DNA from: Gammaproteobacteria bacterium
GTDB taxonomy: Bacteria > Pseudomonadota > Gammaproteobacteria > UBA1113
NCBI GenBank assembly: GCA_019752835.1
Contig: JAIELR010000175.1
Coordinates: 1-5,926, forward strand
Direction of reading: 5' to 3'
DNA length: 5,926 nucleotides
The translations under genes and the position numbers were made by a program. A model generated the notes under the pieces. The model was not told where the DNA came from and ran no database searches. It was given only the letters and a program-made list of their open reading frames with translations. Position 1 is the stretch's first letter. The number at the start of each line of letters is the position of its first letter. Below, one piece after another: positions 1 through 5,919 of this stretch.

Positions 1-629
1 GCAGCTTGCAATTGCATTCTACCGCTTAGGGTTAATAACACCTTGGCATGCCCTGTATCTAATTTCTTTTCGCTAAGCCATTGTTTTACTTGGGGTTCTA
101 GATTTAGTAAGCGCAATAAATTGGTGATTTGGGCACGCGATTTACCTAATAGAGCGGCGGCATCGTCGTGGGTTAATTGGCACTCCTCAATTAAGCGCTC
201 AATGGCTAAGGCTTCATCCAAGGGCGATAAGTCTTCGCGCTGAATATTTTCTATTAAAGCCAAGGCCATGGTAGTTTGATCGTCTATGGTTTTGATGATC
301 ACGGGTACTCGACTTAATCCAGCCAATTGCGCTGCCTTGAAGCGGCGTTCGCCAGCGATGATTTCATAACGATGTTCATCGAGAGGACGCACCAGCAGAG
401 GTTGTAATATACCTTGTGTTTTGATCGAGCTGGCCAAATCTGCTAAGGCTTCGCTGTCCATCTCGCGTCTGGGCTGAAATTGCCCGCCTTGAATCATTTC
501 TATGGCCATTTCTTGAAGGCCGGTGGGGGCTGTCGCATTAACAGGCATAGGTTCAGTTTTTTCTACCGTCGTATTTAAAGTGTTGCTCAATAAATCACCT
601 AAACTGCGGCCTAAACGGGATCGTGCCAT
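1..629 (-). CDS. parB: ParB chromosome-partitioning protein, C-terminus cut off by window edge
   Basis: ParB is the CTP-dependent clamp that loads at parS sites near the origin and works with ParA to segregate chromosomes. Codons are in phase from 3 to 629 with no stop, giving the first 209 residues; family members are usually near 280-300, so the C-terminal dimerisation domain lies off the left edge. The N-terminus MARSRLGRSLGDLL is typical. The CTP-binding region contains GERRF at residues 93-97 and ENIQRED at 127-133. A helix-turn-helix region follows at about 152-176, with LTHDDAAALLGKS, and the frame is still open past HAKVLLTLS. The ATG at 629-627 has GGAG (642-639) 9 nt upstream. It sits 28 bp downstream of parA on the same strand, so the two are almost certainly one operon. 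Family assignment is very secure. Confidence 0.96.
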   Translation of the reverse strand, partial: MARSRLGRSLGDLLSNTLNTTVEKTEPMPVNATAPTGLQEMAIEMIQGGQFQPRREMDSEALADLASSIKTQGILQPLLVRPLDEHRYEIIAGERRFKAAQLAGLSRVPVIIKTIDDQTTMALALIENIQREDLSPLDEALAIERLIEECQLTHDDAAALLGKSRAQITNLLRLLNLEPQVKQWLSEKKLDTGHAKVLLTLSGRMQLQA

Positions 630-657
630 GGTATATGTCTCCAGTATGCAATTATGC

Positions 658-1464
658 TTAAGAAGCTACTGCTTCTCGTTGTTGTTGTTCTGCGCGACGT
701 ACTTTAATGCGCGCTAAAATTTCATCCGCTAAATCCAGATAGGCTTTTGCACCTGGGGATTTAGCATCGTAATACAACGCAGGTAAGCCGAAGCTCGGTG
801 CTTCCGCTAAGCGTACATTACGGGGAATAACGGTTTTAAACAGCTGTGTTGAAAAGTGCCGGACTAATTCTTTGGTGACATCCATGCTTAAACGGCTGCG
901 CGGGTCTACCATGGTGCGTAAAATGCCTTCGATATACAGATCTGGGTTAACCAATTCTTGTAATTCCTGAATAGTGCTGATAAGGCCTGATAAACCTTCT
1001 AAGGGATAATATTCACATTGCAGCGGAATTAATACACTGTGTGCTGCAACCAAAGCATTAACGGTCAAGGTATTTAAAGTCGGTGGACAATCAATAACGA
1101 TGTAATCATAACTATTGCCAATGTTTTTTAAAGCTTTTTGCAGCGTGTATTCTCTGCCTTCTAATTTTAATAGGGCTGTTTCTGCTGCGGTAAGTTCTTC
1201 ATTCGCTGCTAATAAATCATAGCCAGTGCGTTCCTGGTGCGTCACTACATCTAGGATATTTTTGCTGTGCATTAATACATCGTATACAGAGGTTTGGATA
1301 CTTGCTTTGTCACAGCCGCTGCCGGTACTGGCATTACCCTGGGGATCCAAGTCTATCAATAGCACGCATTTACGTTTTACAGCCAGGGAAGCCGCTAAGT
1401 TGACGCTAGTGGTCGTTTTCCCCACACCGCCTTTTTGATTGGCTACAGCGATAATGTGTGGCAC
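658..1464 (-). CDS. parA: ParA/Soj chromosome-partitioning ATPase
   Basis: ParA is a MinD/ParA-type ATPase that binds nucleoid DNA as an ATP dimer and is stimulated by ParB, moving or anchoring the origin region. The 268-residue length is normal for chromosomal Soj proteins, which lack the N-terminal HTH of plasmid type Ia ParA. The deviant Walker A motif KGGVGKTT is at residues 11-18 (signature K11, P-loop K16), Walker A' LIDLDPQGN at 36-44, and Walker B YIVIDCPP at 121-128 (D125). The conserved IPRNVRLAEAPSFG (213-226) and SPGAKAYL (236-243) segments are present, so the enzyme looks intact. The start is GTG at 1464-1462: an in-frame TAA lies upstream at 1515-1513 with no ATG between, and AGGGGA lies 7 nt before the GTG. 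parB follows 28 bp downstream. The divergent neighbour is a phzF gene rather than the rsmG (gidB) often found beside parA in related bacteria. Confidence 0.97.
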   Translation of the reverse strand: MPHIIAVANQKGGVGKTTTSVNLAASLAVKRKCVLLIDLDPQGNASTGSGCDKASIQTSVYDVLMHSKNILDVVTHQERTGYDLLAANEELTAAETALLKLEGREYTLQKALKNIGNSYDYIVIDCPPTLNTLTVNALVAAHSVLIPLQCEYYPLEGLSGLISTIQELQELVNPDLYIEGILRTMVDPRSRLSMDVTKELVRHFSTQLFKTVIPRNVRLAEAPSFGLPALYYDAKSPGAKAYLDLADEILARIKVRRAEQQQREAVAS

Positions 1465-2533: not shown

Positions 2534-3481
2534 TCAAGCCGAAGAAAATTGGTGCGAATTAAGGTTCAAATGACGGACCGAAAAATAGTATTGTTGATTG
2601 TTTATTATTAATTTATCTGATAAGCATAGAATATTATGCCATTCTGTTATCGGTAAATTAGTTTCATCGCCATAAAAGCAGGGGATAAAACCAGCGTTTA
2701 ATTTCTCTATTAAAGTCCGTTTTGAGTTATTGCCTTCTGCGATATCTTTGTAGTAGTTAAGCTCTGACTCAGGCATAAAAGTAAAAATAAGCGGCTCATT
2801 TTTTTCTGTAATAAACAGATAAGAGCCATTGGTATTCAGTAAATAGTACTCTGTCACTTTATATTGAACGATTATTTTTGAAAAAAACTTAGAAAATTCG
2901 GTTGAAAATAGCAGCGTATACAGATCGGTGTTATAAGCCAGTTTACGTGTTTGTTTATAGAAAAAATTATGTTTTGCATCTTCAATATGTTGAGATAATA
3001 TGAGTTTTAAATTGGGTGAATCCTTTAATAGAAATTTATCAATGATACCTCTATTAAATGCCTCAACCGCTAATTCATGGCTGGCTTTTCCCGTTAACAT
3101 AATAATAGAGATGTCTTCCTTACAAAGGTTACGCGCAAATAAAAACCCATCCATCTCTGGCATATCATGATCAAGTATGATAGTAGTTATTTTTTGCTGT
3201 CGATTGAGTAATTGAGAAAGATTAACGAATTCCTGAGTGAGCGTTGATTGTGAGATCAAATCATTTTCCGCTAGAATATCCTCTAGATCTTTTTTAGGTT
3301 GGTTATTAAAGTGAAGATTGTGTTCCTGTTTGTTTTGATTAACTATTTGTAAAGCTTTAACAGGATTCGATTCAACAATGCATAAATGTTGTGCAGATAA
3401 AGCGGCTGTTATGGTCGATAAAAAGATTTCATTATCGTCCACTAATAGTGTTGTCGTTGGATATGAAAAAAGATAAGGCAT
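2534..3481 (-). CDS. Response regulator with enlarged receiver and non-HTH C-terminal domain
   Basis: A 315-residue cytoplasmic protein, last gene of the signalling operon. The receiver starts with LLVDDNEIF (acidic pair D15, D16). ILDHDMPEMDGF places the phospho-accepting aspartate at D104, three residues before MP, with T130 (MLTGK) and K153 (LLK) as switch threonine and lysine. The D16-D104 distance is about twice the usual 40-45 residues because of a polar insertion at about 49-97. AVEAFNRGIIDKF (138-150) is a motif I recall from a widespread proteobacterial regulator family with this same insertion. Residues from about 165 to 315 form an uncharacterised domain with YYLLNTNGSYLF and IPCFYGDE segments; no HTH, GGDEF, EAL or HD motif is visible. 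ATG at 3481 has AAGGAG 6 nt upstream, overlapping the previous stop, so translation is probably coupled. Receiver identity is firm; the output is unknown. Confidence 0.88.
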   Translation of the reverse strand: MPYLFSYPTTTLLVDDNEIFLSTITAALSAQHLCIVESNPVKALQIVNQNKQEHNLHFNNQPKKDLEDILAENDLISQSTLTQEFVNLSQLLNRQQKITTIILDHDMPEMDGFLFARNLCKEDISIIMLTGKASHELAVEAFNRGIIDKFLLKDSPNLKLILSQHIEDAKHNFFYKQTRKLAYNTDLYTLLFSTEFSKFFSKIIVQYKVTEYYLLNTNGSYLFITEKNEPLIFTFMPESELNYYKDIAEGNNSKRTLIEKLNAGFIPCFYGDETNLPITEWHNILCLSDKLIINNQQYYFSVRHLNLNSHQFSSA

Positions 3482-3487
3482 AAGAGT

Positions 3488-3493
3488 CTCCTT
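3488..3493 (-). promoter_or_regulatory. Ribosome binding site of the response regulator gene
   Basis: The minus strand reads AAGGAG, 6 nt before the ATG at 3481. Its first base is part of the TAA stop (3495-3493) of the small upstream gene, which points to translational coupling. Confidence 0.8.
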
Positions 3494-3747
3494 TAATTAG
3501 TCTGGGGGCTTTCTTGCAATGTATAAATTAATATATTAATTTGCGTAATAGCAGCTTCAATATTATTTAGTAGTCTTAAGATGGTTTCAAGCTGAGTCGT
3601 TTTTATTATATTTTCTATGTTAAAATCAGGATTTTCTTTTTCAAGAATTAAAGCATTAATAAATGGTTTTACAGCATCAACTGCGACGGAAATAGTTGAT
3701 AGTGGTGTTTTTATATTATGTTTAAATTTATCTAGGTTATCAGACAT
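3493..3747 (-). CDS. Small stand-alone H-box (DHp-like) protein, possible histidine phosphotransferase
   Basis: The sequence near the N-terminus, FKHNIKTPLSTI, matches the H-box of histidine-kinase dimerisation domains, which usually read H-(E/D)-x-(R/K)-x-P-L. The candidate phospho-accepting residue is H10. The rest looks like two long amphipathic helices (about 4-36 and 43-78), as expected of a DHp hairpin. No N, G1 or G2 box exists, so it cannot bind ATP like a kinase. The residue after the His is Asn instead of the usual acidic residue, which would suit a phosphotransfer partner better than an autokinase. I prefer the ATG at 3747 (84 residues) because GGAG lies 6 nt upstream; the in-frame ATG at 3759 has no such site and would give 88 residues. 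It lies 15 bp after the hybrid kinase stop and 11 bp before the response regulator, so it is probably an intermediate between them. It could instead be a kinase inhibitor or a remnant of a larger kinase. Confidence 0.75.
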   Translation of the reverse strand: MSDNLDKFKHNIKTPLSTISVAVDAVKPFINALILEKENPDFNIENIIKTTQLETILRLLNNIEAAITQINILIYTLQESPQTN

Positions 3748-3753
3748 TTTTTT

Positions 3754-3757
3754 CTCC
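3754..3757 (-). promoter_or_regulatory. Ribosome binding site deciding the start of the small H-box gene
   Basis: The minus strand reads GGAG followed by six A residues and then ATG at 3747. The first G belongs to an upstream in-frame ATG (3759-3757) that has no purine-rich site of its own. This makes 3747 the better start. Confidence 0.65.
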
Positions 3758-3762
3758 ATGGT

Positions 3763-5919
3763 CTAGTAAGGACAATTTTTACCACTAATAGCGTTAATCC
3801 AATATAAATTAGGGAAATTGTCATGTGGTTTTCCTGTTACTAAGTAAAGATTTCTATAACCCATCATGTATAAATCTCTGGCAATCTCTTCGCCCTTTAT
3901 GCCATCGTTCAATTCAGAGTCTATATAAAGTGGAGTTTCTATTGAGTAATCTATTATTTCTTGTAAAAATAAATCAACATCATTAAATGTTTTAATATTA
4001 ATATTTTTCAGCTCACAGGAAAGTTCCCAGGTATTGGTGATCAATGAATCGTTATCAAGAAATATGAGATCAATCTTAATATCATCTGTAATTTCTATTG
4101 GAATGTATGCGAAGAAAAATTTTGGTAACAACTTGACACCCGAGCGCAAACATTCTTCCCGTAAAATATCCAATTCATAGCAGCTAGTGACTAATATAGC
4201 ATGGCTTTCTGCACCACATTGTTTGATTAACTCCATGCCATTTATTTTACAACCTTCAAATTGATAATCAACTAGCAATAAGTAGGGCTCGTTGATATTT
4301 ATTTTGCACCAACTAATGAATTCTGTTGGGTCATTGAAATGAATTATCTTAAAATCTAATGTCTTAGATAAAAATTCCAAACGATTATCCCAGATTTGGT
4401 GCACAGATTCTTCATCATCAACAACGACGACGTATTTAATATTTTTACTAAAAAGTATACGTCCTGCAAACCAGGCAGGGGGTTTTGCCAAGGGTAAGCA
4501 AATTTTTATTGTTGTTCCATGATTTACCTGCGATTCGATCGTTAATGTACCGTTCCATGATTTAACATGAGCGATTGCAGAAGATAAACCTAAGCCATGC
4601 CCCTCTTTACCATGACTGCTGCTACCATTCAATAACAGGGGTAATAGATGGTCAGGGATACCGCATCCTGTGTCAACGATTTTGATAATCGCCTCTTTAG
4701 ATGATATTTTTAAAGAAACTCTAATATTCCCCTTACCCGAGGTAGCTTCAATGGCATTGTTTAAGATATTAGAAAGTGTTCTTTTGAAGAAACCAGGATT
4801 TATATTGACACATATTCCATGAGCTTGTTCATGTATTTCAAAAGAAATTTTTACATTAGATTTATTGAGTTGTAGTCGTTTTTCTGAGACAACCATGTAA
4901 ATCAAATCAGAGATCAATTCTGAAGTGAGATAATTTTCGATTTCTTCATTATCTAGTTTTTTAATTAATCGATATTGACTTAACAGGTTATTAGCAATAT
5001 CGTTAATCCTATTAATGGCATGTTTAATGAGCAGCCGCTTTTTCTCTGGGAATTGATTTGCGTCTACGGCAAGAACCTCAAGAGCCGCGAGAGGGCTGCG
5101 AATATCATGTGCGATTTGTATGGCAAAATGGCTTAAAGTTGCTTTTTTCTCGCTTTCACGTATTCGTATATTTTCAAGGTACAATCGATTCAGTAATTGG
5201 TCAAAAACACTTTTTATTTTATGTATCTCAATAGGAGCCCAACCGATATCTCCCATATTGGTAGTTTCACAAATATTTGTATAGTCAAGTTGAGCAATTT
5301 TTTTCTCTAGTTTAATTAAGGGAGATAGCAATTTTTTGTGTAGGTTTATTTTTAACAAAATAAAAAGCAAGCCGGAAATGACAAAAAGTGAGAAGAGTAA
5401 CTTCATTAATAGTATCCAGGGTTTAAAAGTGAAATCAAGGTTATTAAAACTAATTAACACCCCTAATCTGGTGCCATTTTCTGTATTTTGATCGTAATAG
5501 TAAATGGGTGAGCAGTAAAAGAAATGATTCTTATGTAAAGTCTTTTCTGTTTTATTGAGTAACGAACAATCAATATTCTTGTTGGCCGAGATCAATTTTT
5601 TTATGACGTCAAAATACAGGTAGTCTGACATATAGATATTTTTATTATTATCAATAACAGAAAAAAATATATCTTTAGAAGAGGAAAGTGCTAATAATCT
5701 ACGGATTTCCATCACGTTATAGATTGAAAGCTCTGGTGCAATAATTGAAGAAAGTGTAGTGTGGGTATCATGTATTTTCGCAATGCGCTCTATCTTAGCA
5801 TTATTTTTCTCAATAAAAACGCCCGCAATAAAAGCAATTAGAAAAATGAACGAAATAGTACCCAATAAGGTGTGGGATATATATTTTTTAAGTGTGTAAT
5901 TTTTTCTAATAAATGGCAT
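3763..5919 (-). CDS. Membrane hybrid histidine kinase with two C-terminal receiver domains
   Basis: A 718-residue inner-membrane sensor kinase. TM1 is at about 17-36, a periplasmic sensor region at 37-167 (possibly Cache-like, with C118 and C136), TM2 at 168-190 and a HAMP-like linker at 190-245. The HisKA H-box AHDIRSPLAAL gives phospho-acceptor H271. The ATPase has an N box NNAIEA (387-392), G1 DTGCGIP (416-422) and G2 GHGLGLSSA (440-448). After a PPAWF linker (480-484), receiver 1 (about 496-610) has D501/D502, D551, T578 and K600. A compact second receiver-like domain (617-718) has D622/D624, D667, T695 and K714. All key residues are present, so kinase and relay activity are expected; the ligand is unknown. 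The ATG at 5919 directly follows an in-frame TAA, so the gene is complete. No ribosome site fits in the 7 bases left before the window edge. First gene of a three-gene operon whose promoter is outside the window. Confidence 0.93.
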   Translation of the reverse strand: MPFIRKNYTLKKYISHTLLGTISFIFLIAFIAGVFIEKNNAKIERIAKIHDTHTTLSSIIAPELSIYNVMEIRRLLALSSSKDIFFSVIDNNKNIYMSDYLYFDVIKKLISANKNIDCSLLNKTEKTLHKNHFFYCSPIYYYDQNTENGTRLGVLISFNNLDFTFKPWILLMKLLFSLFVISGLLFILLKINLHKKLLSPLIKLEKKIAQLDYTNICETTNMGDIGWAPIEIHKIKSVFDQLLNRLYLENIRIRESEKKATLSHFAIQIAHDIRSPLAALEVLAVDANQFPEKKRLLIKHAINRINDIANNLLSQYRLIKKLDNEEIENYLTSELISDLIYMVVSEKRLQLNKSNVKISFEIHEQAHGICVNINPGFFKRTLSNILNNAIEATSGKGNIRVSLKISSKEAIIKIVDTGCGIPDHLLPLLLNGSSSHGKEGHGLGLSSAIAHVKSWNGTLTIESQVNHGTTIKICLPLAKPPAWFAGRILFSKNIKYVVVVDDEESVHQIWDNRLEFLSKTLDFKIIHFNDPTEFISWCKININEPYLLLVDYQFEGCKINGMELIKQCGAESHAILVTSCYELDILREECLRSGVKLLPKFFFAYIPIEITDDIKIDLIFLDNDSLITNTWELSCELKNINIKTFNDVDLFLQEIIDYSIETPLYIDSELNDGIKGEEIARDLYMMGYRNLYLVTGKPHDNFPNLYWINAISGKNCPY

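What the first reader, a model, noticed from the sequence alone, without database searches (positions are those of the whole stretch)
2534..5919. Three-gene split phosphorelay: hybrid kinase, stand-alone H-box protein, response regulator
Seen: three same-strand genes with 15-bp and 11-bp gaps, together containing H271, D551, D667, a small-protein H10 and a regulator D104. Known: multi-step His-Asp-His-Asp relays use a hybrid kinase, a histidine phosphotransferase and a terminal regulator. Inference: the 84-residue protein replaces a classical HPt and carries phosphate from the kinase receiver to D104. I do not know a described system with exactly this architecture.
Basis: partly seen in the sequence, partly recalled or inferred. 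Interest (0 to 1): 0.72.

Follow-up and report, generated by a model that had tools for sequence, protein, structure and literature searches.

The report
Split phosphorelay feeding an LqsR-family regulator
Three neighbouring bacterial genes look like a four-step phosphate relay in which the middle carrier is a tiny stand-alone piece of a sensor kinase rather than the usual carrier domain, and the same arrangement recurs in related bacteria, so it looks like a real variant of a known signalling design.

Summary
In detail: same-strand genes, gaps of 15 and 11 bp, and H271, D551, D667, H10 and D104 in place. The regulator is a full-length LqsR relative (6sy9). The small protein shows no HPt match; it looks like a stand-alone DHp (HisKA-type) hairpin whose profile matches the DHp of LqsS-like kinases beside LqsR-family genes (hhalign probability 98.3). 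H10 is kept in 36 of 38 members; the acid after the histidine is mostly Phe. In one locus REC2, small protein and regulator are three separate genes, a Spo0F-Spo0B-Spo0A-like layout. Best reading: H271, receiver (REC2 favoured), H10, D104. Against: no biochemistry; the window's REC2 has Asn for the second acid; eight exceptions; one HPt-like frame beside a small gene and one kinase with an HPt motif near a regulator; only three independent pairs, p 0.25. New variant of a known kind.

The parts
3763..5919 (-). Hybrid histidine kinase, 718 aa: membrane sensor region (by eye), HisKA-type DHp, HATPase_c, REC1, REC2
   Evidence: Pfam HATPase_c E 7e-20, Response_reg E 0.0016 and HisKA E 0.18, the last two below cut-off; kinase-family alignment; two receiver-like domains predicted in residues 480-718, mean pLDDT 85.9
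5107..5109 (-). H271 codon, autophosphorylation site
   Evidence: H in 24 of 24 rows that cover it, 28 rows aligned
4267..4269 (-). D551 codon, REC1 phosphoacceptor
   Evidence: D in every row that covers it; window REC1 also keeps DD, T and K
3919..3921 (-). D667 codon, REC2 phosphoacceptor
   Evidence: Y[IV]DS[DE]L in 15 of 15 rows with REC2; the window's acidic pair is D-N, as in L130, where most rows read D-D
3493..3747 (-). Small stand-alone DHp-like protein, 84 aa (88 aa if started at 3759)
   Evidence: helical hairpin, mean pLDDT 88.2; Pfam HisKA E 0.013, below the gathering score, and 34 of 38 family members match HisKA at E up to 0.1; hhalign to the DHp of LqsS-like kinases probability 98.3, E 1.1e-14
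3718..3720 (-). H10 codon of the small protein, proposed second phosphohistidine
   Evidence: H in 36 of 38 family members
3754..3757 (-). Shine-Dalgarno-like GGAG before the 84-aa start
   Evidence: read directly from the sequence
2534..3481 (-). LqsR-family response regulator, 315 aa
   Evidence: phmmer to 6sy9_A over residues 7-300, E 1.2e-28; profile E 1.6e-97
3170..3172 (-). D104 codon, terminal phosphoacceptor
   Evidence: D in 16 of 16 aligned rows, window included; aligned with the receiver Asp of 6sy9; LqsR D108 is named in PMC3376566 (passages)
3488..3491 (-). Shine-Dalgarno-like GGAG before the regulator start
   Evidence: read directly from the sequence

Best explanation
A three-gene His-Asp-His-Asp phosphorelay. 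A membrane hybrid kinase autophosphorylates on H271 and passes phosphate to one of its own receivers; REC2 (D667) is the likelier donor to the next step, REC1 (D551) the alternative. The 84-aa protein, a stand-alone LqsS-type DHp hairpin that would dimerise into a four-helix bundle, takes the phosphate on H10 and hands it to D104 of an LqsR-family regulator. Shown: gene order, domain identities, conservation of the five phospho-residues, likeness of the small protein to the DHp of kinases beside LqsR-family genes, and recurrence of the set. Inferred: dimerisation, direction of flow, donor receiver, and output.
For: The small protein is predicted as a helical hairpin with its histidine on helix 1 and aligns over 67 columns with the DHp of plain kinases beside LqsR-family genes (LqsS-like by position, not compared with L. 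pneumophila LqsS itself). H10, T14, P15 and I19 are kept in 36, 36, 37 and 37 of 38 members. The residue after the histidine is F in 31 of 38, D in 2, whereas the 21 LqsS-like H-boxes extracted (of 23 kinases; L006 and L241 are the same place) all have E or D. That acid is needed for kinase and the Thr/Asn for phosphatase activity in four HisKA proteins (PMC3510030, abstract), so its loss fits a carrier that does not autophosphorylate. Of 102 LqsR-family regulators, 33 have a REC2 gene or piece and a small H-box gene within 7 kb, 61 neither, 5 REC2 only, 3 small only. Over whole genomes 31 of 31 strong type-B hits (E up to 2e-16) share a contig with an LqsR-family gene, 27 of them within 110 bp. 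In L125 a 108-aa REC2 is its own gene directly before the small gene and the LqsR paralogue. The window's regulator groups with 4 type-A and 3 REC1-only rows, among others, at 97/90.
Against: No biochemistry. The window's REC2, and that of L125, has D-N instead of D-D. Rows are related: only 3 independent pairs differ in REC2, all 3 agree, p 0.25; the contig-edge filter of that test spared rows with both features and so removed every exception in the tree (4 REC2-only rows and the 2 L113 rows). Exceptions: REC2 without small gene in L228, L230, L233 (two regulators) and L234; small gene without REC2 at L113 (two regulators) and L118. L120 has a truncated HPt-like frame (Pfam Hpt E 0.074) between kinase and small gene, and in L237 a kinase with an HPt motif lies 1.1 kb from the LqsR-family gene, so an ordinary HPt may serve some members. 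In the REC1-only loci that I read (L010, L102, L111, L122, L129) no second histidine protein was seen. The window protein's own HisKA match is below the gathering score.
Confidence: 0.72

Rival explanations
1. The small protein is chiefly a phosphatase or phosphate drain for the LqsR paralogue. As a DHp without the acid but with the Thr at H+4, it docks on the regulator and removes phosphate, while the kinase phosphorylates the regulator directly.
For: T14 is kept in 36 of 38 and the acid mostly lost; in four HisKA proteins Thr/Asn is needed for phosphatase and the acid for kinase activity (PMC3510030, abstract). The same gene order would be expected.
Against: Phosphatase action alone does not readily explain the near-invariant H10 or the link to a second receiver, nor REC2 as a separate gene beside it in L125.
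Confidence: 0.14
2. The small protein is a modulator that pairs with the kinase DHp or blocks it, and the kinase or its receivers signal to the LqsR paralogue without a second histidine, or through an HPt elsewhere.
For: REC1-only kinases near LqsR paralogues show no small gene in the loci read; HPt-like sequences occur at L120 and L237.
Against: The type-A profile matches the DHp of LqsS-like kinases over 67 columns but the hybrid kinases' own DHp only over 12, so it looks matched to the regulator rather than to the kinase.
Confidence: 0.1
3. The small gene is a decaying remnant of an LqsS-type kinase.
For: Its sequence is LqsS-like, and LqsS-like pseudo-kinases exist beside LqsR paralogues in relatives.
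Against: 36 of 38 members keep the H-box histidine; the window gene has its own GGAG and tight spacing.
Confidence: 0.03

Closest known systems
Lqs system of Legionella (LqsS/LqsT to LqsR)
   Same: Same regulator family over its full length; the small protein resembles the DHp of kinases beside LqsR-family genes.
   Different: Lqs is described as flow from LqsS and LqsT to LqsR (PMC11237717, passages). Here the kinase is a hybrid one with two receivers and the DHp is a separate 84-aa protein. No LqsA or LqsS in the 5.9-kb window.
Spo0F-Spo0B-Spo0A (Bacillus)
   Same: Receiver, dimeric hairpin phosphotransferase, regulator; Spo0B forms its four-helix bundle from the hairpins of two subunits (PMC3433190, passages). 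L125 has a separate receiver gene too.
   Different: Spo0B has a C-terminal ATPase-like domain (recalled) and the window's protein has none; the regulator family differs (recalled).
CckA-ChpT-CtrA (Caulobacter)
   Same: Hybrid kinase, DHp-based phosphotransferase, regulator.
   Different: ChpT keeps a C-terminal domain resembling the ATP-binding domain, without autokinase activity (PMC3433190, passages). PMC9981736, in the passages seen, gives HPt or pseudo-HK as the relay intermediate; this one is a DHp alone.
CqsS-LuxU-LuxO (Vibrio)
   Same: Hybrid kinase, separate histidine protein and regulator in quorum sensing (PMC3376566, passages).
   Different: LuxU is an HPt (fold recalled); the window's protein has no Hpt match.

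Membership tests
LqsR response-regulator family | Full-length similarity to LqsR, receiver plus its own output domain | tested here: met
   6sy9_A, residues 7-300, E 1.2e-28; profile E 1.6e-97. The tables call 6sy9 only 'Response regulator'; that it is LqsR is recalled, and fits the structure paper in the reference list seen.
LqsR response-regulator family | Receiver residues DD, phospho-Asp, Thr, Lys | tested here: met
   D15, D16, D104 and K153 invariant in 16 of 16 rows, T130 in 90% or more
Lqs quorum-sensing system | LqsA synthase and LqsS sensor with LqsR | tested here: inconclusive
   None in the 5926-base window; the rest of the genome is not held
Lqs quorum-sensing system | Response to an alpha-hydroxyketone signal | not testable with these tools
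   No experiment possible
HPt phosphotransfer proteins (PF01627) | Match to the Hpt profile | tested here: not met
   No Hpt match for the window protein nor among the families listed for the 38 members at E up to 0.1
Pseudo-HK phosphotransferases (Spo0B, ChpT) | DHp followed by a degenerate CA domain | tested here: not met
   84 aa, two predicted helices only
DHp / HisKA fold | H-box and helical hairpin | tested here: met
   HisKA found in 34 of 38 members at E up to 0.1, the window protein at 0.013, below the gathering score
DHp / HisKA fold | Dimer forming a four-helix bundle | not tested
   Only a monomer model was run; fold search took no jobs
Hybrid histidine kinase | H-box, HATPase_c and C-terminal receiver with DD, D, T/S, K | tested here: met
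   REC1 has the whole set; REC2 has D-N in place of D-D
His-Asp-His-Asp phosphorelay | Phosphate passes through all four residues | not testable with these tools
   Inferred from anatomy and co-occurrence only

The most novel reading that the evidence does not exclude
A third class of relay intermediate besides HPt and pseudo-kinase: a DHp-only phosphotransferase, reduced from an LqsS-type kinase (kinase, then soluble pseudo-kinase, then hairpin alone), that turned LqsR-type two-component pathways into phosphorelays. An analogous small H-box protein (type B, not shown to be homologous) sits in the same place in many genomes of the Legionella order, so the step may have happened twice.
Probability: 0.48. 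Interest if true: 0.75.

Novelty: new variant of a known kind. Interest (0 to 1): 0.6.

Why it matters
If true, it adds a minimal carrier of about 84 residues to the known relay intermediates, shows LqsR-family regulators ending phosphorelays fed by different sensors, and gives a natural series (kinase, pseudo-kinase, hairpin) for how a two-component pathway becomes a relay. It also gives a role to small genes that, where a source names them, are mostly called hypothetical protein.

Tried and rejected
HPt identity: not supported. Chance ORF or remnant: rejected. Type A and type B as one family: not supported (hhalign probability 2.2; type B to LqsS-like DHp 7.8; 0 of 11 type-B members match HisKA). 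The small protein as a copy of the hybrid kinase's own DHp: not supported beyond 12 columns. Spread outside the order: 0 of 369 class-wide genomes for type A at 1e-12 and for type B at 1e-6; the tool warns that an empty answer without a positive control shows nothing. Type B in the order of G001: 0 of 36 (same warning). Placing the window's organism: not achieved (PhzF at most 54% in the order of G003; ParA at most 59% in the order of G001; my cut-off was too strict to tell anything). Promoters and terminators: no more than in shuffles. PDB sequence search with the small-protein profile: best kinase chain only E 0.054, best hit a designed protein E 0.0011. PDB search with the last 115 residues of the kinase (REC2): best E 0.034, not a receiver by name. 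For these I lowered the main confidence from 0.74 to 0.72 and the novel case from 0.50 to 0.48, and raised two rivals slightly.
Full report
WHAT IS THERE. The window holds parB and parA on the minus strand, a PhzF-family gene on the plus strand, and then the three genes of the finding on the minus strand. The kinase has a membrane sensor region (by eye), an H-box (H271), a HATPase_c domain and two receivers. Pfam sees the first receiver weakly and the second not at all. An alignment of 28 related kinases and pieces shows that the window's REC1 keeps DD, the phospho-Asp, T and Lys. REC2 keeps D667, T and Lys, but its acidic pair reads D-N, as in L130, where most rows read D-D. A structure prediction from only three sequences gives two alternating strand-helix domains at mean pLDDT 85.9; no fold comparison was possible.

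THE REGULATOR. It matches PDB 6sy9_A from residue 7 to 300 (E 1.2e-28; profile 1.6e-97). The tables call that chain only a response regulator; that it is Legionella LqsR is recalled, and fits the LqsR structure paper in the reference list seen. LqsR receives phosphorylation signals from LqsS and LqsT (PMC11237717, passages), and its receiver Asp is D108 (PMC3376566, passages).

THE SMALL PROTEIN. A search of 5.8 billion proteins with it alone found itself and one 98% relative. A profile of six such proteins (A3) then found 38 short proteins, itself included, among them ones from Legionella spiritensis and L. nautarum. Where a source names them the name is hypothetical protein, except one called signal transduction histidine kinase. 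That search admits only proteins of similar length, and several come from contigs of about 1 kb or less. The histidine is kept in 36 of 38, T14 in 36, P15 in 37, I19 in 37; the two without it look mis-started or broken. The model is a two-helix hairpin (residues 2-38 and 50-79, mean pLDDT 88.2). For profile comparison I used 33 of the 38 (five broken or outlying rows left out) and 21 of 23 plain kinases of 390-560 aa near LqsR-family genes (two lacked my motif pattern; L006 and L241 are the same place). I call these LqsS-like by their position; they were not compared with L. pneumophila LqsS itself. The small protein matches their DHp (probability 98.3, E 1.1e-14, 67 columns) and much less the hybrid kinases' own DHp (84.7, 12 columns). 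The residue after the histidine is E or D in all 21 LqsS-like H-boxes, but in the small proteins F in 31 of 38, N 2, L 2, D 2, A 1. In CrdS, HK1190, HK4262 and HK853 that acid is needed for kinase and the Thr/Asn for phosphatase activity (PMC3510030, abstract). So the protein looks as if it has given up autokinase chemistry while keeping the phospho-residue and docking part.

RECURRENCE. The LqsR-family profile hit 87 of 143 genomes of the order of Legionella yabuuchiae and 9 of 36 of a second order at E up to 1e-20 (in some genomes only 15 candidates were scored). I read neighbourhoods of part of these (80 regions) plus 21 of the 49 loci; the other 28 were left out because their match covers little beyond the receiver. 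In the place of the window's small gene I found two kinds of small H-box protein. Type A (the window's kind) stands directly before an LqsR paralogue on the same strand in 6 of 6 loci with context; a REC2 piece stands upstream in 4 of the 6. Type B (72-77 aa as a rule, HDxxN motif) usually follows a REC2 kinase with the regulator converging. Type B is analogous only; homology is not shown. Over whole genomes, the type-A profile's strong hits in short frames were 4 in 143 genomes and 1 in 36, all next to LqsR paralogues; the next best were DHp domains inside kinases, many of them close to LqsR. The profile was built from those five proteins plus the window's, so finding them again is circular; that none lay elsewhere is not. 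Type B gave 33 hits in 30 of 143 genomes; 31 of 31 with E up to 2e-16 share a contig with an LqsR-family gene (one, in G152, broken), 27 within 110 bp, and the two weak ones (E above 0.003) do not.

CO-OCCURRENCE OF REC2 AND THE SMALL GENE. Of 102 LqsR-family regulators of 200 aa or more, 33 have both within 7 kb, 61 neither, 5 REC2 only, 3 small only. REC2 here may be a whole kinase or a piece at a contig end. Dropped before the count: L108 (same place as L017) and regulator pieces under 200 aa (so L217, with broken regulator pieces, a REC2 piece and a type-B gene, is not counted). L006 and L241 are the same place, and both count as neither. Many type-B rows are near copies. On the regulator tree (86 rows) type-B regulators form a 100/100 group of 20 rows (17 with the small gene seen, 3 without, on short contigs or at their ends), and the window falls in a 97/90 group of 12 rows: 5 type A, itself included, 3 close relatives of the window without context, 3 REC1-only and 1 with neither. 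A stricter set (56 of 83 rows) is 21 both and 35 neither, but its contig-edge filter spared rows with both features and removed all six exceptions that were in the tree. Only 3 independent pairs exist, all agreeing, p 0.25. The link is consistent but not statistically shown once kinship is allowed for.

TELLING LOCI. L125: a 108-aa stand-alone REC2 (pair D-N as in the window; D, T and K kept), then type A, then the LqsR paralogue; the gene before REC2 is KAS III-like by eye, not a kinase. L230 and L233: REC2 kinase or piece with the regulator, no small gene found, but a soluble protein that matches the LqsS-like kinase profile (65 and 70 bits) and whose ATP-binding boxes look lost by eye; L113 has another (150 bits). 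These suggest a series from kinase to pseudo-kinase to hairpin. Against a universal role of the hairpin: L120 has a 77-aa HPt-like frame (Pfam Hpt E 0.074) between its REC2 kinase and type A. A motif scan of 4453 frames found three other HPt-like places; one of them, in L237, is in the nearest kinase to the LqsR-family gene, 1.1 kb away, while those in L116 and L127 lie about 4 and 6 kb from theirs.

MECHANISM. I commit to H271 to receiver to H10 to D104. REC2 is the likelier donor because REC1 is present in the hybrid kinases that I read in full, also those without a small gene, while REC2 goes with it. The Asn in the window's REC2 speaks somewhat against this and keeps D551 open. Direction, dimerisation and output are inferred. 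An EnvZ chain of 67 aa is among the solved structures (1joy, E 0.26; that it is an isolated DHp dimer is recalled), so a DHp alone can fold.

WHAT IS KNOWN. The relay intermediate is described as HPt or pseudo-HK (PMC9981736, passages). The listings shown by searches of an open-licence library (top rows only) held no title that I recognise as a DHp-only relay protein or an LqsR relay of this form. Most subscription papers are not in it, and I saw only passages or abstracts of seven papers (one search found none of its terms).

VERDICT. Real, recurring, ordinary in principle and unusual in its middle part. New variant of a known kind.

Noticed in passing
L125 6704-7030 (+): REC2 as a separate 108-aa gene before the small gene and LqsR paralogue, downstream of genes that look by eye like FabG, acyl ligase, ACP and KAS III.
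   Followed up: partly
L116 6309-7184 (-): Type-B H-box domain joined to a cyclase-family protein (Pfam Cyclase E 2e-24) in one frame.
   Followed up: partly
L230 597-1370 (-), L233 669-1502 (-), L113 8412-9197 (-): Soluble LqsS-like proteins with degenerate-looking ATPase parts beside LqsR paralogues.
   Followed up: partly
L120 8427-8660 (-): Truncated HPt-like frame between a REC2 kinase and a type-A small gene.
   Followed up: partly
L237 4082-6610 (+): Kinase of 842 aa with a C-terminal HPt motif, 1.1 kb from an LqsR-family gene.
   Followed up: no
L114, L122, L129: LqsR paralogue with a REC1-only kinase about 3.8 kb away and no small gene; in L122 and L129 a peptidase-like and a substrate-binding-protein-like gene lie between (names by eye).
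   Followed up: no
G174 (loci L083, L109-L112): Five LqsR-family regulators in one genome of the Legionella order.
   Followed up: no
window 3-1464 and 1666-2460: parB and parA pair and a PhzF-family gene beside the relay genes.
   Followed up: no
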